32,418 nucleotides of DNA from Patescibacteria group bacterium (GTDB taxonomy: Bacteria; Patescibacteriota; Dojkabacteria; JAKAPS01): NCBI GenBank assembly GCA_025450075.1, contig JANWIC010000010.1:1-32418 (forward strand). The letters are read 5' to 3'. Of this stretch, positions 375 through 30,004 are shown piece after piece. The first letter of the stretch is position 1. Every line of letters starts with the position of its first letter. The translations under genes were made by a program, and so were the position numbers. Below the pieces are notes generated by a model that was not told the origin of the DNA, ran no database searches, and worked only from the letters and a program-made list of their open reading frames with translations.

Positions 375-1631
375 ATGCTGAATTTAGCATATAATGCTGG
401 AAAAATATCACATATGGAATCTGAACATAATTATATAGGCAGTGATAATACTGTTGTAAAGGTAACCAAACATGATGTCGATTTTAATGCAATCTTGTTA
501 GAACAAGGAAAAATCCAACAAGTAAAAATGACTAGAAAAGAAAGTAGAATAGTTACTCCATTTGGTGATTTAAACCCTGAAATACAAATTGAATGGAATG
601 AAGGGAAATCAGATAAAATAGTTCAATTGAAGGTTGATGAAAACAGTTCAGTTCTTAGCATAATTTATTTGGGTTTTGATATAGCAAACAATAATCAATA
701 TTTACTCCCTACTGTCTCTGCAACATATATAGATGGGAAAATTGTTAAAATAACATATAGTGTATCCGCAGAACTGCTAGCTTCTCTATCCAAATTTAAT
801 ACTGTAGAGGATGCATTACGTGTTGTAATGGAAAAAGTAAGAATGCTTGATAAAATTGGATCTGCACAGTTAGCACTAAGATTCAAAAAAGCTTACAAAA
901 CCGATTCATCCCAACAAGAAGAAAATATGATATTTAAAGATATTACCGATAGAATCATGCTAAGATTGCTCTTTCATACTCCACATATTATGGAAACTGC
1001 ATATGCAGAGTCAATTGCTTTAATTAAATTCTTAAATATGAGGAATATGATTGAATTATATTTAAGAAAAGCCTATCCAAAAATTCATAATGGAGATTAT
1101 ACGATTGACCCGCAATCTAGAAATCTCGGAATACATGCATATTATGTTTTACTAAATGAATCAGATGAAGCGATAGACAATTTTTTATGTGCCATTTTAC
1201 TGCATGATTTCATAATTATGCAAAAAGCACAAGTTGATAATCAACAAGTATTAACTCCTTATCATTGTATTACTTTTACCCCTGTTCGTAGACCATTTAA
1301 AATCGAAGTTGAAACTTCAATTGATACTTTATTAGTTTCACAACGTCCGGGTTTACATGGTTTAAATACTCCTTATATGGTTGGAAGATATAATAGAGTA
1401 TCTCATGGAAAAAAACGTGAATTGGAGCTAAATACAGTAGAGGTTACTGCACAAATAAAAAGAAGGCAGTGTGAAATTGATATAACATACCGTGATTTCG
1501 GAAGAGTAAGATTTATTTTACCGACATCTCCTGATTTACCTAATTTGCTAAAATTAAAATCCTATACTTTTACCGAGCTGTTTAAAATGTTGTCAGGAAT
1601 GAAGCCATTGTTATGGGCTGGAAGTCTGTAG
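375..1631 (+). CDS. Hypothetical protein, 418 aa
   Basis: I do not recognise this protein. It is a long uninterrupted frame with normal composition for the region, no signal peptide and no clear membrane segment, so it is probably cytoplasmic. The N-terminal third is rich in beta-type alternation (around residues 20-130), the middle (about 140-300) is helical, and the C-terminal third returns to beta-rich, basic sequence with HGKKRELELN and QIKRRQCEIDITYRDFG. An internal ATG at 414 (residue 14) is an alternative start. The last 50 bases overlap the convergent PgeF-like gene. The candidate promoter at 317-344 fits this gene. Confidence 0.65.
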   Translation: MLNLAYNAGKISHMESEHNYIGSDNTVVKVTKHDVDFNAILLEQGKIQQVKMTRKESRIVTPFGDLNPEIQIEWNEGKSDKIVQLKVDENSSVLSIIYLGFDIANNNQYLLPTVSATYIDGKIVKITYSVSAELLASLSKFNTVEDALRVVMEKVRMLDKIGSAQLALRFKKAYKTDSSQQEENMIFKDITDRIMLRLLFHTPHIMETAYAESIALIKFLNMRNMIELYLRKAYPKIHNGDYTIDPQSRNLGIHAYYVLLNESDEAIDNFLCAILLHDFIIMQKAQVDNQQVLTPYHCITFTPVRRPFKIEVETSIDTLLVSQRPGLHGLNTPYMVGRYNRVSHGKKRELELNTVEVTAQIKRRQCEIDITYRDFGRVRFILPTSPDLPNLLKLKSYTFTELFKMLSGMKPLLWAGSL

Positions 1632-2415
1632 GTGGAAGTTTTACAGCAAATATGATTCTTCCTTGCATTTCCGGATGATTACCATATGTAGCCAAGCGAT
1701 GTGAAAAACATTCTCCATTTTGTGCAGATTCATATGTATCTACCTTATAGCAGATTATATGATCTTTCAAGATATTTGATTCATCTAGTTGTTCCAAAAG
1801 ACATCCTAAAAGATCGAGATATACTTTTCCATCATTTTTTGATGGAATAGAAAATTTATCCCATAATGGATTTGTGAGAATTTCCTTTTCTACTTCATAA
1901 TGCACTTGAGCAATATTTGGAATAATTCCAATATAAATACTTTCTTCTTTACAGCCATAATTGCTTTTGATGAAGGATATTGCTTTTTTGGCAAGCCCCA
2001 AATCTATTCCTTTTCTTCCAACATGTACTAAAGCTATGACATCTTCTTCTTTCTTATCTTTTCCAACAATTACCATACAGGGGCAATCAGCAGGCAGCAC
2101 GGCTAATGGTCGTTTCGTTTTTGTTATTAGGCAATCACATGGAATATCCTCAGAACATTCATCTTCTTTCGTTACTATGGCAATATTATCCTTATGTTCT
2201 GGAAGCATGTATATTACATTTTGGGGATTGATCTGTAACACACTATAAAACTCATTAATATGCTCCGCAACATGTTCTGATTTTCCATATTGAAATGACA
2301 TGTTTTTTACACCTTTTCCCCATGAAAAGTATGCCACATCACCTAATAGTGGAAAATATCCAATATTATCAGATAGGTATTTAACTTGTGTAAGTGTATG
2401 TATCGAATCAGACAT
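1582..2415 (-). CDS. pgeF: YfiH/PgeF (laccase-domain, DUF152) family protein
   Basis: This 277-residue protein matches the YfiH/LACC1 family, whose characterised members act on purine nucleosides and, in bacteria, edit mis-incorporated amino acids in the peptidoglycan stem peptide (PgeF). The three expected metal or catalytic ligands are visible: His74 in LPEHKDN, Cys111 in LPADCPCM and His131 in LVHVGRKG, which replaces the usual HAGWRG. The closing segment GECFSHRLAT...GRIIFAVKL corresponds to the family FSYRRD...GR motif, but the RR pair is changed. It is the last gene of a leftward run containing recT, and its end overlaps the convergent 375-1631 gene by 50 bases. Family assignment is firm; the substrate is not. 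Confidence 0.85.
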   Translation of the reverse strand: MSDSIHTLTQVKYLSDNIGYFPLLGDVAYFSWGKGVKNMSFQYGKSEHVAEHINEFYSVLQINPQNVIYMLPEHKDNIAIVTKEDECSEDIPCDCLITKTKRPLAVLPADCPCMVIVGKDKKEEDVIALVHVGRKGIDLGLAKKAISFIKSNYGCKEESIYIGIIPNIAQVHYEVEKEILTNPLWDKFSIPSKNDGKVYLDLLGCLLEQLDESNILKDHIICYKVDTYESAQNGECFSHRLATYGNHPEMQGRIIFAVKLPPTDFQPITMASFLTTF

Positions 2416-15877: not shown

Positions 15878-17269
15878 TTAGTTTGCCGAACTAAAATAGT
15901 TAATGAGGCCACCAAAATTACCTGATGACATAAAAAGAAGAATATCCCCTTCATTTATTTCACTTTCAATTTCTTGTTTTAAAGCGTCAAATGTATCGAA
16001 ACCGCATGCATCGTGTCCAATTGCTTGAGCAATATCATTGGATGTGACACGAGAATCTTCAGGTACTGCATCAGGATGATACACGGGTGCCACATATATC
16101 TTATCAGCATCATCAAAATATCCAGTATATCCCTCAAGACTATCTTTCAGACGGGATGAGAGTGTATGCGGTTCGAAAACAGCCATAATCTTTTGATGAG
16201 GAAATCTTTCTTTGACAGCAGCAATGCTGGCCGCTGCCTTTATTGGTGAATGGGCAAGATCGTCGATGACAATATATGGTTTTTCTTTTCGAATTTCAAG
16301 ACGACGTCTCACACCTTTAAATTCCTCAACTGTGCTTTGCAAAATTTCCATATCAATATCTAAATACATCCCAACTGCTATTCCCATTACAAGGTTCTGG
16401 ATATTATGTATTCCTATTATTGAAGTGAAAAATTCGTAGTGCTGTTCTCCAACCTGAATACGAAACCGTATACCATGAGCTTCATAAATATAGTCAATTA
16501 ATGAAGCATATACTTCTCGATCTGGATCCTTTATATCGGTATTTACAACGAATATTTTTCTGCTATCTTCAAATCCTCCGGTTACTTTATCTATATTATC
16601 CCCATGTTTATTTACAAAAATACTACCATCTTCATGCATTAATTCAATTCCTTTTCTATATGCATTGATATATTCGTCTTCGCTTTTATATATGTCAATA
16701 TGATCGTATTTTGCGGCATTGATGATAAAGATCGAGGGGTGATAATACAAAAATTTTGCGACAGGGTCAACTCGGGAATTAATATATTCATCTCCTTCAA
16801 TAACCGACCAATCAGAGTCGGTAATCCGAACTCCATCTGAAAAATTTAATGGAATCCCACCAATTGCAAAAGTCGGATGCATACCAGCTTTTTCTAATAA
16901 TAATGAGATAAATGATGATATGGTAGTCTTTCCATAAGTTCCAGCAGCCACGATAGACTGAGGTTTTAAAACATATTCTTCAATAAATCCTGCATATCCT
17001 ACAAAATGTTTAATCCCTAATTCTTTTATTTTAAGATATTCTACATTATTTTGTAATATTGCTGGCCCAACAACAGCAATGTCGATATCACCGGTGATAT
17101 GTTCAGTCTTAAATCCAACTTTTATAGGTATATTATGTTCCTGCAAATAGGTGCTGATAGGAGGATAGAATCCTTTATCTGAACCTTCAACCTCATGGCC
17201 TTTTTCCTGCATACTGACCGCAAGAGGTGCCATCATTACTCCGCAAATGCCAACGAAATATATTTTCAT
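15878..17269 (-). CDS. mpl: Mpl-like Mur ligase (UDP-MurNAc:tripeptide ligase)
   Basis: The 463-residue protein is a complete Mur ligase. Mpl in other bacteria attaches the recycled L-Ala-gamma-D-Glu-mDAP peptide to UDP-MurNAc using ATP. The N-terminal UDP-binding domain has IYFVGICGVMMAPLA and the Mpl-typical EGSDKGFYPPIST (28-40). The P-loop is GTYGKTT (110-116), with Tyr replacing the usual His. GDEYINSRVDPVAKF, KYDHIDIY, FKGVRRRLEIR and VIDDLAHSP match the Mpl rather than the MurC series. Its ATG overlaps the stop of the DUF1611 gene (ATGA). Whether the third residue is DAP cannot be told. Confidence 0.85.
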   Translation of the reverse strand: MKIYFVGICGVMMAPLAVSMQEKGHEVEGSDKGFYPPISTYLQEHNIPIKVGFKTEHITGDIDIAVVGPAILQNNVEYLKIKELGIKHFVGYAGFIEEYVLKPQSIVAAGTYGKTTISSFISLLLEKAGMHPTFAIGGIPLNFSDGVRITDSDWSVIEGDEYINSRVDPVAKFLYYHPSIFIINAAKYDHIDIYKSEDEYINAYRKGIELMHEDGSIFVNKHGDNIDKVTGGFEDSRKIFVVNTDIKDPDREVYASLIDYIYEAHGIRFRIQVGEQHYEFFTSIIGIHNIQNLVMGIAVGMYLDIDMEILQSTVEEFKGVRRRLEIRKEKPYIVIDDLAHSPIKAAASIAAVKERFPHQKIMAVFEPHTLSSRLKDSLEGYTGYFDDADKIYVAPVYHPDAVPEDSRVTSNDIAQAIGHDACGFDTFDALKQEIESEINEGDILLFMSSGNFGGLINYFSSAN

Positions 17270-18366
17270 AAAGTGTTTTCTAATACTATTTTTTCTACTG
17301 CACGGGCAATCTCTCCTGTCGGAAAACGAATCATATCTTCGACAGGAAGTCCTGTTTCATCTGTATATTGTTTCATGATTTCTTTTGCCTCCTGCTCAGG
17401 CATCCCATTTGAATTAACTGCAATCCCTATAAATTCTGGAATTCGAATTGGAAGTGCCATTTCCTTGTATTTTGTTATCATTACTTGAGGAGCAGGTAAT
17501 TTAATTAGTTTTGAACCAATGGAATGTCTTCTTTGCGGACGTTGGATAAGGATTGCATGAGAAGGCATACCACCATGAAGTAACGCTAGTGATACAGGTG
17601 CATATCCCGGATGGAATATTCCTCCCTGTCCTTCTATTACAAGAAAACGGTTATCAGGATCTGCTTCCAATACTAATTGCTCAACTGCTCCAGGCATAAA
17701 ATCACCTATTACCCTATCGATTGATATACCTTTTCCCTTAATCATAATTGCAGTCTGACCGGTTGCTAATAATTCTCCTTTTATTCCCTTTTGAGAAAGA
17801 AGCCTTTCAATTTCAAACCCCACAGTCATTTTTCCTATTGCAGCATCAGCTGCACAGGTCAGGATAATGGGTTTTTTCATTACATATGCTTTGCATGAAG
17901 CAACAGCTAATCCCTCTGGTGGAACCCGTACATCCCACATAGTTACTTGATGCTTGCATGCAAGCTCTTTAAGTTCGCTATCCTGATTTAATTCATAATG
18001 CATTCCGCTCATTATATGCATGCCATGTGAAATTGCTAATTTTATAACATTCTTTAATTCTCCGCTCATTTCACCACCGGATGGGGCAATTCCTATCATA
18101 AAGATATCGGGAATGTGAGATGGATTTCTTTGCAAATAGTGATCTAAGCTTTGATACAACATTACATCTGGACGAATGCCAAGTATCTCTTCTACATTTT
18201 GCTCTGTTGCACTGCTGTCTATTACTCCGACAATGTGCGTTTTCGCATACCGAAGATAACCATCAGCTGTTTTAGCACGCAAAGGGTATTGTTCTCTGCA
18301 TTTTCGTGAAAAAGCCTGGTCAGCATAGATAAGGACTGAATGGGTTTCAATTGTAAAATCAAACAT
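17266..18366 (-). CDS. DUF1611 (DgcN-like) P-loop protein
   Basis: The frame is open further upstream, but the ATG at 18366, overlapping the MurE-like stop by eight bases, is preferred and gives 366 residues. It matches DUF1611: N-terminal Rossmann-like part, then a P-loop CAADAAIGKMT (171-181; usually GTDCAVGKMT), LLATGQTAIMIKGKG (199-213), FLVIEGQGGIFHPGY (241-255) and LALLHGGMPSHAIL. A DUF1611 member (DgcN) has been reported to N-acetylate D-glutamate, and the family is often linked to dipeptide epimerases. Lying between two Mur ligases, it probably handles D-Glu or a D-Glu peptide. The biochemical role here is inference. Confidence 0.82.
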   Translation of the reverse strand: MFDFTIETHSVLIYADQAFSRKCREQYPLRAKTADGYLRYAKTHIVGVIDSSATEQNVEEILGIRPDVMLYQSLDHYLQRNPSHIPDIFMIGIAPSGGEMSGELKNVIKLAISHGMHIMSGMHYELNQDSELKELACKHQVTMWDVRVPPEGLAVASCKAYVMKKPIILTCAADAAIGKMTVGFEIERLLSQKGIKGELLATGQTAIMIKGKGISIDRVIGDFMPGAVEQLVLEADPDNRFLVIEGQGGIFHPGYAPVSLALLHGGMPSHAILIQRPQRRHSIGSKLIKLPAPQVMITKYKEMALPIRIPEFIGIAVNSNGMPEQEAKEIMKQYTDETGLPVEDMIRFPTGEIARAVEKIVLENTL

Positions 18367-19639
18367 GAGATTCTTTCTTATGTAGGTATTGTAAAGCAAT
18401 TTCTTCTTCATTCCAAGGGAGTTCATTCGTTCCGATACACATACTCTTTTCATGCCCTTTACCGAGAAATGCAAGAATTGTATCTGGCTTTGCAAGAGAA
18501 ATACACTTTGCAATTGCCACTTCTCGTGATGGAATCAAAAAAAGATTTTTGTTTAATTGAAACTTAATTTTATCAATTCCTTCTAATATATCATTAGCAA
18601 TACCATCAAATGTTTCATCTCTCGGATCTTCTGATGTAATGACAATAGTATCGCAAAATTGAGATGCATATTCTCCCATTGGTTTCCTTTTATTTTTATC
18701 TCTTTTACCTGCGCATCCAAACAATGCAATAATTTTTTTGTCAGGATAAGATGTTGTTAATGTTGAAAAGAACTGTAGAAATGCATTTGGCGTATGAGCA
18801 AAATCAATAATTACTTTAAAGGGTGTTTCTTGGATAACATTCATTCTTCCTGCAATATTTCGGGTTTTTTCAATACCAGTTACGATGCCGCTTATACTCA
18901 TCCCTAAATTAATAGAAACACTGACTGCACCAAGCGCATTTTGAATATTGTATCTTCCATTAAAATGGAGTGTTAGAGGAAAGGAGATATTCGATAGCTT
19001 CATATGCAGCTGGTATCCATCTTCCATATTTTTAATATCCCGTGCGAAATATATTGGAAAATCTTTATTCTTTTTAGTTTCATCAAGAGAGAAACCTATG
19101 ATTTGCAATTGCTTTCCGATATCTTTTGCCTTTTCTATTAAATATGTGAAATTGAGATCATCAGCATTTAGCACCAGAAAACCTTTTGGTTTAACCATTG
19201 AAATAATACGAGATTTTGCTTCCCGATATGCTTCAAAAGTCTTATGATAATCCAGATGTTCTGGAGTAATATTGGTTATGATTGCAGCATCTAAAAATAT
19301 CCCATGGGCACGAAATTGGTCAAGGCCATGGGATGTCAATTCAAGAACAACATACTCAATACCTTTCCTCTCCATTTTTGCAAGATTTTGGTAAATATCT
19401 TTGCTTGATGGAGTTGAAGTATGAAGCCCCGTATCAAAAATTTCATCGTCAATCTTTCCTCCTATTGTTGAGATAATGCCTGTGCGTTTTCCGCTCGCTT
19501 TTAGAATTTGGAAAAGCATTTCAGATGTGGTTGATTTGCCATCTGTACCAGTTACCCCTATGACATGCATTCCCTTAGTCGGATTTTTATACCAAAGACG
19601 GTATCCTAAAGAGCGAATTTTTCGTAATTGATGTTTCAT
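18359..19639 (-). CDS. murE: MurE-like Mur ligase without the N-terminal UDP-binding domain
   Basis: MurE adds the third stem-peptide residue to UDP-MurNAc-L-Ala-D-Glu. This 426-residue protein has the ATP-binding and C-terminal Mur domains: P-loop GTDGKSTT (31-38), ELTSHGLDQFR, TNITPEHLDYHKTFEAY with the region of the carbamylated Lys, GRYNIQNALGA, and C-terminal SEDPRDETF and GKGHEKS. The EDPR replaces the DAP-specific DNPR, so the amino acid added is uncertain. The P-loop starts at residue 31 instead of about 115, so the domain that grips the UDP-sugar is missing. Its ATG overlaps the sigma-factor stop by four bases (ATGA). Confidence 0.85.
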   Translation of the reverse strand: MKHQLRKIRSLGYRLWYKNPTKGMHVIGVTGTDGKSTTSEMLFQILKASGKRTGIISTIGGKIDDEIFDTGLHTSTPSSKDIYQNLAKMERKGIEYVVLELTSHGLDQFRAHGIFLDAAIITNITPEHLDYHKTFEAYREAKSRIISMVKPKGFLVLNADDLNFTYLIEKAKDIGKQLQIIGFSLDETKKNKDFPIYFARDIKNMEDGYQLHMKLSNISFPLTLHFNGRYNIQNALGAVSVSINLGMSISGIVTGIEKTRNIAGRMNVIQETPFKVIIDFAHTPNAFLQFFSTLTTSYPDKKIIALFGCAGKRDKNKRKPMGEYASQFCDTIVITSEDPRDETFDGIANDILEGIDKIKFQLNKNLFLIPSREVAIAKCISLAKPDTILAFLGKGHEKSMCIGTNELPWNEEEIALQYLHKKESHV

Positions 19640-20217
19640 ACTTGTTGTAATTGTTTTTTAAGTTTTTCACGAAGTCTTTGTAATCTTGTCCCGACATTTG
19701 TTTCACTAAGTCCTACAAGATTTGCTATCTGTTTATTAGACATATCTTCAAAGTACTTATAATATAGCAAGAATTGATCCTGCTCATCAAATTGCCTGAA
19801 GATTTCATATAATTGCTTTTCTTCTTCACTGACAATAATCTGCAGCTCAATTGATAATACATTATCTGCAACACTATCTTCTAACGTTGTACCAGACTCA
19901 TCATCACGTGAGAAAGACTGCTGCAAAGAAATTGCAGGTTCTCTCACATTCTTCTTTCGAAAATAATCATACAATGTATTTCGAGCTATCCGATAAAGCC
20001 AACTTTTCACACTAACACCTTCCCATTGAAATGTATCAATTCCCTTTAATGCTTTTTCAAAAGTTATGGAGGCCATGTCTTCAGCCGTCTCTTTATCCTT
20101 CACAAAACCATGAACATACCGTAAAATATCCTGATAATAGGTACGGTAAAAATAGTCGAAATACTTCTTATCCTTTTGGGCCTTTTTAGCAATTTCTGCC
20201 TCTTCTGATGGTTTCAT
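19636..20217 (-). CDS. ECF-type sigma-70 factor
   Basis: The 193-residue protein has only the sigma-2 and sigma-4 regions, as in ECF sigma factors. Sigma-2 (about 20-87) includes FYRTYYQDILRYVHGFV, ETAEDMASITFEKAL and SWLYRIARNTLYDYFRKK. Sigma-4 (about 125-190) includes FEDMSNKQIANLVGLSETNV and GTRLQRLREKLKKQL, a helix-turn-helix. No anti-sigma gene lies next to it. Both ends overlap their neighbours by four bases (ATGA), so it is locked into the translation of the Mur cluster. It probably directs transcription of envelope genes, perhaps including its own operon. Confidence 0.92.
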   Translation of the reverse strand: MKPSEEAEIAKKAQKDKKYFDYFYRTYYQDILRYVHGFVKDKETAEDMASITFEKALKGIDTFQWEGVSVKSWLYRIARNTLYDYFRKKNVREPAISLQQSFSRDDESGTTLEDSVADNVLSIELQIIVSEEEKQLYEIFRQFDEQDQFLLYYKYFEDMSNKQIANLVGLSETNVGTRLQRLREKLKKQLQQV

Positions 20218-21005
20218 TCTTCTTCGATGAATCTGTGAAAAATGGTCTGTATTTTATCTGAAGGGATTTCAAATGTATTCAATGCATTGCATGCATCATC
20301 AAATGAAATTTCAAAGTGTTTTGCAAGAGATACCGATGCGGTCAATAACGGATAGATAAACTCAGGGAATGATTTTTCAACAACACATACCTGTCCTGCA
20401 TGACCAAGCATAAAACTTTGCTTTTCTTCTACAAAATAGTAATCAGGAACAGGATCTTCTTTAATCCCAAAATATACAACTCCTTCTGTTTTTCCCTGTG
20501 CCAGACTTTTTGTTCGCATATTATCATTGTTCAAAACCAATATACCGTCGGGTTGCATTTTTTCAACTAAAAGCAGTTCCAGGTTTAACGAACCTGGATG
20601 AGAATTTAATACAATTACTGCTGAAGGGGATAAAAAACTCATCCAATATTTCATGATACCAGCATCATGACTGTTAATCTGGAGTACTAATATGCCACTA
20701 TTCGGTTTTAGAAAAAGAAGACGAGCAATTGCATGAGTTAAGGTAGTTATCCAGGCAAATGGGTTTGTTGGAACTTCATTAATTCCTAAAATTGTTAATG
20801 GAATGTCCCAGTCATATTGAGGAGAATGAATGATTCTCCTTACTTTTTTACCACTTCGTTTCAGAATTGTGAATACTGCTTCTCTTGCAATATCTGTTCC
20901 ATACCAGCCTCCGACTGCAATAATTTCTAATTGATGTTTGTTGACTGCAATGAGACAAAGTGATGTCAATATTCGTCTCAATCCTCTTCTAAAAAGTATC
21001 TTCAT
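20214..21005 (-). CDS. MurF-like protein with degenerate P-loop and no C-terminal domain
   Basis: The 263-residue protein aligns by eye with the central domain of MurF-type ligases found in CPR genomes. IIAVGGWYGTDIAREAVFTI corresponds to the MurF Walker A region (normally GSVGKTS), PQYDWDIPLTILGINEVPTN to the NNEIGVPLTIL segment, and AVIVLNSHPGSLNLELLL, PDGILVLNNDN and ACNALNTFEIPSDKIQ to later MurF parts. The P-loop Lys and Thr are replaced by Thr and Asp, and the whole C-terminal domain is missing, so ATP-dependent ligation is very unlikely. Its start lies inside the last codons of murA and its stop overlaps the sigma factor start. It may be a structural or regulatory pseudo-enzyme. Confidence 0.65.
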   Translation of the reverse strand: MKILFRRGLRRILTSLCLIAVNKHQLEIIAVGGWYGTDIAREAVFTILKRSGKKVRRIIHSPQYDWDIPLTILGINEVPTNPFAWITTLTHAIARLLFLKPNSGILVLQINSHDAGIMKYWMSFLSPSAVIVLNSHPGSLNLELLLVEKMQPDGILVLNNDNMRTKSLAQGKTEGVVYFGIKEDPVPDYYFVEEKQSFMLGHAGQVCVVEKSFPEFIYPLLTASVSLAKHFEISFDDACNALNTFEIPSDKIQTIFHRFIEEE

Positions 21006-22299
21006 AGACTGTCACATCTCCTCCAAGTTTTGTTAATATATCAGCTATATGGGGATATCCCCTGTTAATATGTTCAGTCGATCGTAAAATTGATTTGCCG
21101 GTTGCGGCAAGCATCGCTCCTAGAAACATTACTCCCGTCCTGATATCAGGACAAGTTAATTCTGCTCCAGTAAGCGGGGTTTTCCCATGTACAAGTACTC
21201 TGTGATCATCCAATACATTTACATTTGCACCCATGTTCCGTAACGAGTCTGCATGTCGAACACGTCCATTATATAACTTTTCGAAAAAAAGAAATTCCCC
21301 ATCAGCTTGCGTTGCAAGAGGAATAAAGATAGGTAACAAGTCAGTTGGGAATTTCGGCCACGTATCAGAATATATTCCGATATTTGCATAGATATTAAAT
21401 GATTCATTTAATTTCAAATCCTGTTCTGATCGTATATGTATCGTATTACCATCAAATTCCCACATAGTATTAAAATATTTTAACACAACTAATATTGGAC
21501 GAAGGTCTTCAGGAATGACATGATGAATCCGGATATCACCACCGGTAAGCAATGTATAAACAATAAAGGTTGCAATATATACATGGTCTTTTATAATACT
21601 GCCTTCCGCACCATGAAGAGATGCAACCTGGACAACATGCAACCTATTCGAACCTATCCCATGGATTTGTGCACCCATAAGCTGTAGGAACTGGCAAAGG
21701 TTTCGCACATGAGGCTCAGATGCAGCATTTTCGATTATGACTTCTCCGTCTCCTAAAACATTTAAAAGAATTGCATTCTCAGTTGCCGTTACACTTGTTT
21801 CATATAAGAAAATATGACGCTTTTGTCCGGTCATATCTTCCTTTTTTTGAATTAAAACTTCATCAGTACCTTGAATTGTTTCAACATTGTATCCTGACTG
21901 TTCAAACACATCAAAATGGGCTGCCATACTTCTCAATCCTATCCTGTCTCCTCCAGGTCTCGTACATTTGACCTTCCCAAATCGTACAAGAAGCGGAGCT
22001 AAAACTAAATTTCCTCCCCGAATTCTTGCATATTCATCATTATCAATGTTTGAGCTTGTTAAATGGGAAGGATCTATGGTTAAACTCTCCCCATGATTGG
22101 CAAAATTACCAACTGCTCCGGAATGTGAAATAATTTTAACCATTGTTCTCACATCTGAAATGGCAGGACAGCCATGGAGGGTACTGGTTTCATTACTCAA
22201 CAAAGTTGCAGCAATTATAGGAAGAACAGCATTTTTACTTCCTGCTGCTTCTATCTCGCCTTGAAGTGGATTTCCCCCTTGAATGATAAATGTAGCCAT
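20989..22299 (-). CDS. murA: MurA, UDP-GlcNAc enolpyruvyl transferase (Asp variant)
   Basis: MurA transfers enolpyruvate from PEP to UDP-GlcNAc, the first committed step of peptidoglycan synthesis. The 436-residue protein is full length, with AAGSKNAVLPIIAATLL (18-34, Lys22/Asn23), LVLAPLLVRFGKV, and the C-terminal DIRTGVMFLGAMLAATG. In the active-site loop the usual Cys115 of PGGCxIG is replaced by Asp118 (RPGGDRIG). The Cys-to-Asp change is known from mycobacterial and chlamydial MurA and is associated with fosfomycin insensitivity. The ATG is 22 bases from the stop of the upstream secreted protein and its end overlaps the MurF-like gene by 17 bases. Confidence 0.94.
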   Translation of the reverse strand: MATFIIQGGNPLQGEIEAAGSKNAVLPIIAATLLSNETSTLHGCPAISDVRTMVKIISHSGAVGNFANHGESLTIDPSHLTSSNIDNDEYARIRGGNLVLAPLLVRFGKVKCTRPGGDRIGLRSMAAHFDVFEQSGYNVETIQGTDEVLIQKKEDMTGQKRHIFLYETSVTATENAILLNVLGDGEVIIENAASEPHVRNLCQFLQLMGAQIHGIGSNRLHVVQVASLHGAEGSIIKDHVYIATFIVYTLLTGGDIRIHHVIPEDLRPILVVLKYFNTMWEFDGNTIHIRSEQDLKLNESFNIYANIGIYSDTWPKFPTDLLPIFIPLATQADGEFLFFEKLYNGRVRHADSLRNMGANVNVLDDHRVLVHGKTPLTGAELTCPDIRTGVMFLGAMLAATGKSILRSTEHINRGYPHIADILTKLGGDVTVYEDTF

Positions 22300-26480: not shown

Positions 26481-28256
26481 CTATTGAGGTGGAATTTTAT
26501 AATACAAAAACAACTCTTTTGCAATATCTGCCCAGAGCGGGACGGCTGTAGTTGCAGCATATAATCCCGCACGAGGGTATTTTAGCATGACAAGCATGAC
26601 AAATTTTGGATCTTTTGCCGGGGCATATCCAACATATGTGGCATTAATGATACCATCCGCATATCCTGCTTTATTCGAAAGCGGTACTTGTGCCGAACCG
26701 GTTTTGCTTGCAATTTCAGGCATATATTGTTTTAAAAATCGTAGTCCATAAGCCGGTTCTCCAGTTGTTGCGTATGTTAACATATCAGTAAGTTTGCTTG
26801 CTGTATCGGTAGAAATAACCCGGCCGATTGCAACAGGTTTTGTATCTTGCTCCTGACTATCTTTTACAACACTTTTTACAATATATGGTTGCATTCGGAT
26901 CCCTTTATTTGCAATAGTTTGATATATTCCAATTACCTGTAATGATGTTGCTCCATAAAACTGGCCGAATGAAGCGGTTGCAAGATCAATATCAGCCCAT
27001 GTTCCCGGATCAGGCACTAATCCAGTCTGCTCCCCTTGAAGTGTTATACCAGTCAGGGTGCCAATACCAAATGCTTTTGTATATTTTACTAAAAGATCTT
27101 TCCCTACAAGTTGAGCAACCATACTTGCACCGACATTTGAAGATTTTTTTAAAATTTCTGCCATATTCATTTTCCCATCCGGCTGCTTGTTAAAGTTATA
27201 CACATATTTTGTGTTTGCTTCATAATATCCTGAGCTGTCATTAAATATTGTATCGGGTGTTATCTTCTTTTCCTCAAGCGCAGCGGCAGCCGTTATCGCT
27301 TTCATCACAGATCCAGGTTCATAAACATTGGAAATCGCCTGGTTTTCAAATGAAGATTGCAATAAAGATGGATCTAGCTTTTTAGTCGGATCTTTACAAG
27401 CATCTTGTTTTGCAAAGACATAGTTATTGCAATCAAGGATATATCCGTTATAGTAGGTGTTAGGATCAAAGGTAGGATAATTTGCCATTGCAATAATTGC
27501 ACCTGACTTCGGATCCATAACAATAACACTGCCACTGTCTGCTTCCTGGTTATCAACCCAATAGGCAAGTTTTGTTTCAATAATTTTTTGTAAATGAGCA
27601 TCTACGGTAAGTGTAATATCTTCTCCAATGCTAGGCGGAATAAAATTGAAATTTGAATTAACAATTGGATTACCAAATTGATCCTTATTTCCAAATAAAT
27701 TTCCATCTACTCCTTTGAGGTCTCCATCAAAATATTGTTCTATTCCATATTGTCCTTCCCCAGAAGAAGGATATACAAATCCTAATACTTGCGAAAGAAG
27801 TGTGTTATTCGGATAACTTCGTTTTTGTGTAAGTATAAACTGGACAGAATTAGTATTCGTATTTGTTAATTTTGCCTCTATAGCTGATTTCTGATTTGGA
27901 GAAATACCCGTGCCGATTTGAAAATACTGTAATCCCTGGTTTTTTTGTTTTTCAAATAATGCTTTGTCAAAGGAAAATAGTGGTAAGACATTTTGTTCAA
28001 ATGATTGTAAATTTGTAATATTTGGAATATAAACATACGCATCATATTGCGGAATATTGATTGCAAGTTCTATCCCGTCTGATGATTTAATAATGCCACG
28101 AGAGGTCGAAATTGAAGTGGAATATTTTTGTTCACTATTGGCTAGAATTTGAAAACTGATATTATCATTTATCTGTAATTGATAAAGGCGATAAATAATG
28201 CTTACTGCAACAACGGCAATACAAATGCATATTACGAATATCCTGGTATTTCTCAT
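26481..28256 (-). CDS. ftsI: Class B penicillin-binding protein, FtsI/PBP2-like
   Basis: The 591-residue protein is a peptidoglycan transpeptidase of the septal FtsI type. A membrane segment lies at 5-25, followed by the pedestal domain with SRGIIKSSDGIELA (52-65), and the transpeptidase domain. The three active-site motifs are intact: Ser316-Val-Met-Lys319 in PGSVMKAITAA, Ser372-Ser-Asn374 and Lys518-Thr-Gly520 in ASKTGSAQVP. There are no PASTA repeats. It starts nine bases after the FtsL-like gene within the mraZ operon, which supports a septal role. Confidence 0.94.
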   Translation of the reverse strand: MRNTRIFVICICIAVVAVSIIYRLYQLQINDNISFQILANSEQKYSTSISTSRGIIKSSDGIELAINIPQYDAYVYIPNITNLQSFEQNVLPLFSFDKALFEKQKNQGLQYFQIGTGISPNQKSAIEAKLTNTNTNSVQFILTQKRSYPNNTLLSQVLGFVYPSSGEGQYGIEQYFDGDLKGVDGNLFGNKDQFGNPIVNSNFNFIPPSIGEDITLTVDAHLQKIIETKLAYWVDNQEADSGSVIVMDPKSGAIIAMANYPTFDPNTYYNGYILDCNNYVFAKQDACKDPTKKLDPSLLQSSFENQAISNVYEPGSVMKAITAAAALEEKKITPDTIFNDSSGYYEANTKYVYNFNKQPDGKMNMAEILKKSSNVGASMVAQLVGKDLLVKYTKAFGIGTLTGITLQGEQTGLVPDPGTWADIDLATASFGQFYGATSLQVIGIYQTIANKGIRMQPYIVKSVVKDSQEQDTKPVAIGRVISTDTASKLTDMLTYATTGEPAYGLRFLKQYMPEIASKTGSAQVPLSNKAGYADGIINATYVGYAPAKDPKFVMLVMLKYPRAGLYAATTAVPLWADIAKELFLYYKIPPQ

Positions 28257-28593: not shown

Positions 28594-29532
28594 TCAATTA
28601 AGTACTTTTTCAAAACATCGAAGTTTTGCGCTTCTCGCGCGCTTGTTTCTATCTACTTCTTCTTTATCTGCCATTTGCATCTCACCAATCTCTCTATATT
28701 TTCCATTTTGAACAAAATGTCTTTTAATAATCTTATCTTCCAGTGAATGGAATGATAACCATGCTACTCTTCCATTGATTGCAAGAGAAGTATCAACTGC
28801 CTTTACTGCTTGTTCAATCCCTTCCATTTCGCTATTTACTGCAATCCGTAGTGCTTGAAATGTTTTTGCATACGGGTTTTTGTAATAAAAAGGGATACTT
28901 CTTTTAATTGCATCACAAAGTCCTCTGGTTGTCGTAATCGGCTTTTCTTTCCTTGCTGCAATAATTCCTCGCGCAATCCGTTTTGCAAAAACTTCTTCTC
29001 CATATTCGCGTAATATCTGTTCCAGTTCTTTTTCATACATTCCGTTAACTAAATCTGCTGCACTTACACCCAGTCTTTTATCCATTCTCATGTCTAATGG
29101 TCCATTTTGCATATAGCTGAAACCCTTTTCAGGTTCATCTATCTGGTATGAAGAAACTCCTAAATCAAAAAGAATTCCTGAAGCTTTTGTCTTAGTATAA
29201 CCTAGCATTGTTGTTACTTCAGTAAGAATCTGATCAAGATATTTGTAATTATTATGTGCAAGAGCTGCATAACAATCTCCTCTTTTGAAAATGAGGATGT
29301 CATCCATCTCATTAATCCTGATAAATTCTTGTTGTAAAAGAGCATTTGTATTGTGTTCAATCGCATCCTGATCTACATCAATACCAATACATAATCCTTC
29401 ATGCAGTCTTTTAATCATGGAATTAAAATGTCCACCTCCACCAACAGTACAGTCTACATAGATGCCTTCGTCTGTAATTTGTAAAAGATCAATAATTTTT
29501 TCTCTTAAAACCGGTTCATGATAATTCATCAT
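28594..29532 (-). CDS. rsmH: 16S rRNA m4C1402 methyltransferase RsmH
   Basis: RsmH (MraW) N4-methylates C1402 of 16S rRNA using S-adenosylmethionine. The 312-residue protein has the N-terminal YHEPVLREKIIDLL, the SAM-binding VDCTVGGGGHFNSMIK, ILFDLGVSSYQIDEPEKGFS, GPLDMRMDKR, FQALRIAVNSEM and RVAWLSFHSLEDKIIKRHF, all characteristic. The ATG shares one base with the mraZ stop (TAATG), so translation is coupled to mraZ. Confidence 0.97.
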   Translation of the reverse strand: MMNYHEPVLREKIIDLLQITDEGIYVDCTVGGGGHFNSMIKRLHEGLCIGIDVDQDAIEHNTNALLQQEFIRINEMDDILIFKRGDCYAALAHNNYKYLDQILTEVTTMLGYTKTKASGILFDLGVSSYQIDEPEKGFSYMQNGPLDMRMDKRLGVSAADLVNGMYEKELEQILREYGEEVFAKRIARGIIAARKEKPITTTRGLCDAIKRSIPFYYKNPYAKTFQALRIAVNSEMEGIEQAVKAVDTSLAINGRVAWLSFHSLEDKIIKRHFVQNGKYREIGEMQMADKEEVDRNKRARSAKLRCFEKVLN

Positions 29533-29960
29533 TACCCAATCTCATGTAATTTATCTGCAATCTGTGCACTGTTTTCATACAAATAGCTTTTTCTTTCAAC
29601 CCATTTTTCTTTATCCCAGATTTCAACCCATCTACTCAGGCCTAAAAATACTAATTCATCAGATAATTGCGCATATTCTATAAGGTTTTCAGGAAGAACA
29701 AATCTTCCCTGTGAATCCAAATCCGCTTCAACTGCTCCACCAATTAAAAACCTCGCTGTATCTCGCAAAGTATTATTAGTAAAAGGAAGAGTTTCTAAAG
29801 TTGAAGTTAGTCCTTCCCATTGGGATCTCGAAACCATAACAAGACATCTTTCATACCCTTGCGTAACAATACAAGTTCCTCCCAATTCATCACGGAATTT
29901 TTTAGGAACTGCAGTCCGATTCTTTTCTCCTAATTTTGTTCTGTATTCTCCGATGAGCAT
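29532..29960 (-). CDS. mraZ: Transcriptional regulator MraZ
   Basis: MraZ represses its own division operon by binding repeats near the promoter. The ATG at 29960 gives 142 residues beginning MLIGEYRTKLGEKNRTAVP, the standard MraZ start; an upstream GTG at 29984 lies inside the operator and is rejected. The two SpoVT/AbrB-like halves are visible: EKNRTAVPKKFRDEL and DLDSQGRFVLPENLIEYA. The C-terminus WDKEKWVERKSYL is also typical. The operator lies between promoter and start codon at 29981-30004. Confidence 0.95.
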   Translation of the reverse strand: MLIGEYRTKLGEKNRTAVPKKFRDELGGTCIVTQGYERCLVMVSRSQWEGLTSTLETLPFTNNTLRDTARFLIGGAVEADLDSQGRFVLPENLIEYAQLSDELVFLGLSRWVEIWDKEKWVERKSYLYENSAQIADKLHEIG

Positions 29961-29980
29961 AAGTGCAGATAAACTATTCA

Positions 29981-30004
29981 CCACTATTCACCACTTACAT
30001 CCAC
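29981..30004 (-). promoter_or_regulatory. MraZ operator: three GTGG repeats at 10-bp spacing
   Basis: On the minus strand GTGG occurs at 30001-30004, 29991-29994 and 29981-29984, each followed by six bases, so the period is exactly 10. This matches the direct-repeat type of MraZ-binding box in other bacteria. The repeats sit at the expected transcription start and just downstream of it, suited to repression. Confidence 0.75.

What the first reader, a model, noticed from the sequence alone, without database searches (positions are those of the whole stretch)
17266..18366. DUF1611/DgcN-like protein translationally coupled between two Mur ligases
DUF1611 is reported in D-glutamate metabolism (DgcN) and is often linked with dipeptide epimerases. 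Here it overlaps a MurE-like gene upstream by eight bases and an Mpl-like gene downstream by four. This suggests a role in supplying or capping D-Glu for the stem peptide, a link I do not know to be described.
Basis: partly seen in the sequence, partly recalled or inferred. Interest (0 to 1): 0.6.

Follow-up and report, generated by a model that had tools for sequence, protein, structure and literature searches.

The report
Cell-wall peptide gene beside Mpl ligase
A gene of unsettled function sits next to the enzyme that loads finished peptides onto the cell-wall sugar in a group of tiny bacteria that lack the usual first two peptide-adding enzymes, which suggests that these bacteria build the wall peptide first and attach it afterwards.

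Summary
A DUF1611 gene (17266-18366, minus) overlaps a MurE-like gene by 8 bases and an Mpl-like gene by 4. The constant partner is Mpl: in all 6 genomes of this kind found with the gene, DUF1611 touches Mpl or lies one gene away, on three branches of the Mpl tree. These proteins form their own clade, apart from DgcN, and fail the DgcN cut-off in 6 of 6.

The surroundings matter more. The window's genome has two recognisable Mur ligases and no MurD. Its MurE lacks the UDP-binding domain. Its "MurC" is Mpl. Elsewhere it carries a PLP, ATP-grasp, NlpC/P60 and MraY operon. In its class, MurD (18 of 85) and this ATP-grasp (38 of 85) overlap in only 2 genomes. MurE lacks domain 1 in 18 of 18 MurD-less proteins checked and keeps it in 7 of 7 MurD-bearing ones.

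Best reading: the stem peptide is made free and loaded by Mpl. DUF1611 is an optional P-loop enzyme of that route, perhaps acylating D-Glu's amine. Its chemistry is untested.

The parts
17266..18366 (-). DUF1611 protein, 366 aa: Rossmann-like N domain plus SIMIBI-type P-loop C domain (GKMT), Mpl-linked clade
   Evidence: model pLDDT 85; fold matches; tree
15878..17269 (-). Mpl-type murein peptide ligase, 463 aa, all three domains, intact P-loop
   Evidence: EcMpl 181 vs EcMurC 94 bits; tree; PDB profile search led by Mpl 3HN7
18359..19639 (-). MurE-type ligase, 426 aa, without the N-terminal UDP-MurNAc-binding domain (30 residues before the P-loop; 115 in E. coli); EDPR where E. coli has DNPR
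19636..20217 (-). ECF-type sigma factor within the chain of overlapping mur genes
20214..21005 (-). Degenerate Mur-ligase middle-domain protein (263 aa) without a P-loop lysine
   Evidence: (murF 18.5 bits)
20989..22299 (-). MurA-like enolpyruvyl transferase
26481..28256 (-). Class B penicillin-binding protein of the same division/cell-wall gene group
28594..29532 (-). RsmH-like methyltransferase (division/cell-wall cluster); named by eye from the translation
29532..29984 (-). MraZ-like protein (start of the division/cell-wall cluster); named by eye from the translation

Best explanation
The window carries the peptide-loading half of a peptidoglycan route that works without MurC and MurD. Inferred order: (1) amino acids are joined into a free stem peptide by the PLP/ATP-grasp module encoded elsewhere in the genome; (2) a MurE that has lost its UDP-binding domain extends the free peptide with a diamino acid, probably meso-DAP; (3) Mpl joins the peptide to UDP-MurNAc, as a de novo step and not as recycling. 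DUF1611 is an optional enzyme of this route, made together with Mpl. From its fold and from DgcN I propose that it uses its P-loop nucleotide site to acylate the alpha-amine of D-Glu, most simply giving L-Ala-D-Glu, the bond that MurD normally makes on the nucleotide. Shown by computation: gene layout, linkage with Mpl, missing domain and genes, fold. Inferred: order of steps, substrates, DUF1611 chemistry. I give about 0.6 to 'DUF1611 serves an Mpl-loaded stem-peptide route' and about 0.3 to the L-Ala-D-Glu chemistry.
For: Linkage: DUF1611 next to Mpl in 6 of 6 genomes; DUF1611 is one clade (97/98), while its Mpl partners lie on three branches. Own genome: 2 Mur_ligase_M matches at E<=1e-5, no MurD at E<=1e-30. 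Class: ATP-grasp 38 of 85, MurD 18 of 85, both in 2 (Fisher p 0.0012 before any correction for kinship); family f17 has one genome of each kind. MurE: 30-63 residues before the P-loop in 18 of 18 MurD-less proteins, 140-146 in 7 of 7 MurD-bearing ones. Mpl-type: E. coli Mpl outscores E. coli MurC in 23 of 23 proteins of MurD-less genomes, all with an EGDE[YFH] loop; PMC3060825 (passages read) calls the (S/T)AFFDKRSK loop Mpl-specific, and G039 has SAFFDKKSK. The same paper reports that Mpl accepts tri-, tetra- and pentapeptides. PLP and NlpC genes sit with the ATP-grasp in 17 of 20 loci viewed. The ATP-grasp model (pLDDT 93) matches PurK, biotin carboxylase and the amino-acid ligase PylC at Z 24-26. 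The DUF1611 C domain matches CbiA/CobB (Z 14.4) and BioD (Z 13.6), ATP-dependent amide or ureido formers, tied with MinD/ParA-type ATPases.
Against: DUF1611 is rare: 4 of 85 genomes of the class and 4 of 379 of the phylum sample, so most genomes with the ATP-grasp manage without it, and 4 of the 6 carriers are from one order. It co-occurs with the ATP-grasp, so it does not simply replace it. MurI is also missing from MurD-bearing genomes of the class (1 of 85 over the cut-off, G022), so the source of D-Glu is open in both kinds. G021 and G022 carry both systems. G033 has the MurE/Mpl pair without a detected ATP-grasp. No clear MurF was found in G000. The characterised relative DgcN is an acetyltransferase (title of 7XRJ), not an ATP-dependent ligase. 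No biochemistry exists for any protein here.
Confidence: 0.58

Rival explanations
1. Salvage. The cells import wall peptides from a host or neighbour. NlpC/P60 trims them, domain-less MurE re-extends L-Ala-D-Glu, and Mpl re-attaches the tripeptide. DUF1611 removes surplus D-Glu or Glu dipeptides by N-acetylation.
For: Mpl is a recycling enzyme elsewhere (PMC3060825). A cytoplasmic NlpC/P60 cuts the free wall tripeptide in Chlamydia (PMC9928106, passages). The NlpC here keeps invariant Cys and His (23 of 23).
Against: It does not explain the PLP and ATP-grasp genes that travel with NlpC (17 of 20 loci) or why MurD is absent where they occur. Peptide importers were not looked for.
Confidence: 0.25
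2. Classical order kept. The Mpl-like enzyme acts as MurC on L-Ala, and the ATP-grasp replaces MurD on UDP-MurNAc-L-Ala. MurE lost its first domain because it binds the nucleotide differently.
For: The MurC profile scores the window protein above the Mpl profile (261.7 against 226.9 bits). The ATP-grasp and MurD are nearly exclusive.
Against: E. coli Mpl is the nearer single reference in 23 of 23; the tree groups them with Mpl (92/88); the top PDB match is Mpl 3HN7; loss of the UDP domain is hard to reconcile with nucleotide-bound substrates.
Confidence: 0.14
3. DUF1611 is a DgcN-type D-Glu N-acetyltransferase for catabolism that happens to be encoded here.
For: Same fold as DgcN 7XRJ (Z 34.3 over 328 residues), with the P-loop, ATGQT and EGQG motifs shared.
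Against: Below the DgcN cut-off in 6 of 6; separate clade; no clear DgcA-type racemase in the 12 genomes searched; next to Mpl in 6 of 6.
Confidence: 0.12
4. The linkage has no functional meaning: it is common descent plus chance.
For: Four of the six genomes belong to one order; two pairs are close kin.
Against: The pair recurs on three branches of the Mpl tree and in Spechtbacteria and G379, with overlaps of 4 to 20 bases in four genomes.
Confidence: 0.05

Closest known systems
DgcN, D-glutamate N-acetyltransferase (NF041892; PDB 7XRJ)
   Same: Two-domain fold over the whole length (Z 34.3), P-loop GKM and EGQG motifs
   Different: 194.7-235.9 bits against a cut-off of 480; separate clade; Mpl neighbour instead of the DgcA racemase
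DUF1611 structures 2OBN (Anabaena Ava_3511) and 2G0T (Thermotoga TM0796)
   Same: Nearest solved structures (Z 41.0 and 34.7)
   Different: Titled as a DUF1611 family protein and a putative nucleotide-binding protein, no function given
Mpl murein peptide ligase (E. coli b4233; PDB 3HN7)
   Same: Three domains, Mpl-type loop, tree position
   Different: Below the curated Mpl cut-off (226.9 against 388.7); here it is the only MurC/Mpl-type enzyme found in the genome
Canonical MurC-MurD-MurE-MurF pathway
   Same: MurA, MurE-type middle and C domains, MraY, PBP
   Different: No MurD found, Mpl in place of MurC, MurE without domain 1
Pseudomurein peptide synthesis of methanogens (PMC11915815, abstract and passages read)
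   Same: Mur-type ligases together with an ATP-grasp protein and an MraY-like protein
   Different: There the Mur ligases keep three domains; here the module is PLP, ATP-grasp and NlpC with an Mpl

Membership tests
DUF1611 (PF07755 + PF17396) | Both Pfam domains over their gathering scores | tested here: met
   185.9 and 70.1 bits
DgcN equivalog (NF041892) | Score over the curated cut-off of 480 bits | tested here: not met
   210 bits in the window; 194.7-235.9 in the six genomes
DgcN equivalog (NF041892) | Neighbouring DgcA racemase or dipeptide epimerase | tested here: not met
   None beside it in the genomes read; PF13378 over 12 genomes gave 3 partial matches of 18.8-32.1 bits, one over the cut-off (Spechtbacteria), not characterised further
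DgcN equivalog (NF041892) | Acetyl transfer to D-Glu | not testable with these tools
   needs an enzyme assay
Mpl | Closer to Mpl than to MurC | tested here: met
   23 of 23 by E. coli references; tree 92/88; 3HN7 at 266 bits against 240 for the best MurC
Mpl | Curated Mpl score cut-off | tested here: not met
   226.9 against 388.7 bits; so I call it Mpl-type, not a member of the equivalog
MurC | Curated MurC score cut-off | tested here: not met
   261.7 against 335.1 bits; only 1 of 85 class genomes passes it, so the cut-off is a weak test here
MurE | Profile score over the cut-off | tested here: met
   361.2 against 257.3 bits
MurE | N-terminal UDP-MurNAc-binding domain | tested here: not met
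   30 residues before the P-loop column, 115 in E. coli
ATP-dependent amide formers of the CobB/CbiA-BioD kind | P-loop fold of the C domain | tested here: inconclusive
   Z 14.4 and 13.6, tied with MinD/ParA-type ATPases

The most novel reading that the evidence does not exclude
A branch of the candidate phyla radiation makes peptidoglycan peptide-first: free amino acids are joined by an ATP-grasp/PLP module, a MurE without a UDP domain extends the free peptide, and Mpl loads it onto UDP-MurNAc, replacing MurC and MurD. DUF1611 is an Mpl-coupled ligase that forms the L-Ala-D-Glu bond in part of these lineages.
Probability: 0.4. Interest if true: 0.9.

Novelty: new variant of a known kind. Interest (0 to 1): 0.72.

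Why it matters
The order of murein precursor assembly, amino acids added one by one to UDP-MurNAc by MurC to MurF, is treated as universal in bacteria. A lineage that builds the peptide first would break that rule, give Mpl a de novo role, define a function for an unassigned ATP-grasp/PLP/NlpC module whose ATP-grasp is found in 47 of 379 sampled genomes of the phylum, and place DUF1611 in wall synthesis as well as D-Glu breakdown. It turns 'how do these tiny bacteria make a wall with so few mur genes' into a set of simple enzyme assays.

Tried and rejected
MurI as a marker of the route: rejected, because MurD-bearing genomes of the class lack it too. An epimerase partner for DUF1611: 3 partial PF13378 matches in 12 genomes; I did not check whether they are enolases. 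The four weak PF07755 matches in the class (17-22 bits) overlap MurE-type genes and were not counted as DUF1611. The MurC profile as a test of MurC against Mpl: not decisive, replaced by E. coli references and a tree. In MurD-bearing genomes E. coli MurC outscores E. coli Mpl in 5 of 7, with 2 the other way by 4-5 bits. For the MurE length table I used one row per genome and left out G008, G027 and G079 (broken or contig-edge frames), so 53 of the 56 genomes. G042's long MurE frame (512 aa) was checked: its P-loop is at residue 33. G021 and G022 carry both systems; chimeric bins are possible, but G+C did not settle it. G036:C18 gave a 24337-aa open frame that reads as masked N. MurD was not searched at phylum level (cap reached). 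Literature: searches listed no paper on Mpl, a MurD-less stem-peptide route or DUF1611 in CPR; this rests on listings of an open-access library and is no proof of absence. The DgcN paper is not held, so the DgcN pathway beyond names in tool outputs is recalled.

Full report
1. The observation. The DUF1611 gene, its coordinates and both overlaps are as described. It lies in a minus-strand chain of six overlapping genes: MurA-like, a degenerate Mur middle-domain protein, an ECF sigma factor, MurE-type, DUF1611 and Mpl-type (15878-22299). Nearby is a division/cell-wall group with a PBP and, by eye, RsmH- and MraZ-like genes.

2. Linkage. PF07755 passes its cut-off in 4 of 85 genomes of the class (G000, G041, G038, G039). 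A search with the four-protein alignment found 4 of 379 in the phylum sample, adding G379. A scan of genome contigs added a Spechtbacteria contig and a Sumerlaeia contig. In the six genomes of this kind DUF1611 overlaps Mpl by 4 bases (G000, G038, G039) or 20 bases (G041), lies 21 bases before it (Spechtbacteria), or is separated from it by one opposite-strand MFS gene (G379). MurE is directly next to it in only two. A tree of 15 DUF1611 proteins puts the six in one clade (97/98), apart from DgcN and other plasmid-borne members; their Mpl partners fall on three branches. In 9 non-CPR loci viewed (8 plasmid regions and Sumerlaeia), 5 have a DgcA or dipeptide epimerase at or near DUF1611 and 1 an alanine/ornithine racemase.

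3. The pathway around it. The window's genome (1.11 Mb, 93.5% complete) has two Mur_ligase_M matches at E<=1e-5, both in the window. MurD was not found in any of the 10 genomes of the order. In 5 further genomes of the order the MurE and Mpl genes adjoin without DUF1611 (G033, G034, G035, G037, G040). A third ligase of MurF type occurs in several, beside Ddl or MraY. A second operon holds a PLP enzyme (threonine-synthase-like), an ATP-grasp protein, an NlpC/P60-type protein and MraY. In the window's genome these genes overlap by 22, 4 and 8 bases (L080). Of 20 ATP-grasp loci taken out of the 41 places, PLP and NlpC genes are with it in 17 each, MraY in 8, Mpl in 3 and MurE in 2. The catalytic residues expected of PLP (Lys in SFKDR) and NlpC (Cys, His) enzymes are conserved in 23 of 24 and in 23 of 23 proteins (which residues are catalytic is recalled).

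4. Replacement. In the class of 85 genomes the ATP-grasp is found in 38 and MurD in 18; 36 have only the first, 16 only the second, 2 both and 31 neither (Fisher p 0.0012, not corrected for kinship). Family f17 has one of each. The two genomes with both are 78% and 81% complete.

5. MurE and Mpl. MurE-type proteins from MurD-less genomes have 30-63 residues before the P-loop (17 of 17, plus G042); those from MurD-bearing genomes have 140-146 (7 of 7); E. coli has 115. Open frames tell the same: median 452 aa in 31 genomes with only the ATP-grasp against 534 in 15 with only MurD, with exceptions at contig ends (G038, G018) and one insertion (G042). The window protein has EDPR where E. coli MurE has DNPR, which hints at meso-DAP (the meaning of DNPR is recalled). 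The partner ligases are Mpl-type in 23 of 23 by E. coli references, by tree with E. coli Mpl (92/88) and by the top PDB match, Mpl 3HN7. PMC3060825 (passages) gives (S/T)AFFDKRSK as an Mpl-specific loop and reports activity with tri-, tetra- and pentapeptides.

6. DUF1611 itself. The model (pLDDT 85, 7 sequences) matches 2OBN, 2G0T and DgcN 7XRJ over its length. Its C domain next matches cobyrinic acid a,c-diamide synthase (Z 14.4), MinD (13.7), BioD (13.6) and cyclic 2,3-diphosphoglycerate synthetase (13.3), nearly tied. This is the fold of nucleotide-using enzymes, several of which make amide, ureido or anhydride bonds. A shared fold does not show function.

7. Reading. The MurE without a UDP domain, the Mpl in place of MurC, the missing MurD and the ATP-grasp/PLP module are best explained by a stem peptide that is assembled free and then loaded by Mpl. 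DUF1611 is an optional member of that route. MurD N-acylates D-Glu with the L-Ala end of its substrate, and DgcN N-acylates D-Glu with acetyl, so an Mpl-coupled DUF1611 that forms L-Ala-D-Glu is a coherent guess, but only that. Salvage of imported peptides is the strongest rival: a free-tripeptide NlpC/P60 recycler is known in Chlamydia (PMC9928106, passages).

8. Limits. The lineage is not named by any search; candidate phyla radiation is inferred from the genome size and from the kin found. Genomes are drafts, so absences are weak singly and stronger together. MurI absence does not discriminate. No literature on this route appeared in ten searches of an open-access library.

Noticed in passing
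window 20214-21005 (-): A degenerate Mur-ligase middle-domain protein without the P-loop lysine stands between MurA and MurE; counterparts at the same place were aligned from five other genomes of the order, so it may be a non-catalytic partner.
   Followed up: partly
window 19636-20217 (-): An ECF sigma factor gene lies inside the chain of overlapping mur genes; it is not at that place in G041, G039, G033, G035 or G037.
   Followed up: no
window 1585-2415 (-): A PF02578 protein (YfiH/PgeF type, peptidoglycan editing; name recalled) is present although no MurC was found.
   Followed up: no
L080:7158-11239 (own genome, another contig): PLP, ATP-grasp, NlpC/P60 and MraY genes form one overlapping operon; the ATP-grasp family occurs in 47 of 379 genomes of the phylum sample.
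   Followed up: yes
class families f3-f6, f8, f11: MurE profile matches end near position 417 of 472 in many genomes, which suggests a changed C-terminal part.
   Followed up: no
class family f15: Most of these 31 genomes have neither MurD nor the ATP-grasp: 6 have MurD and none has the ATP-grasp.
   Followed up: no
L160:3887-6204: On a Ruegeria plasmid a DUF1611 gene overlaps a gene annotated as an alanine/ornithine racemase-type enzyme, another amino-acid racemase context for the family.
   Followed up: no
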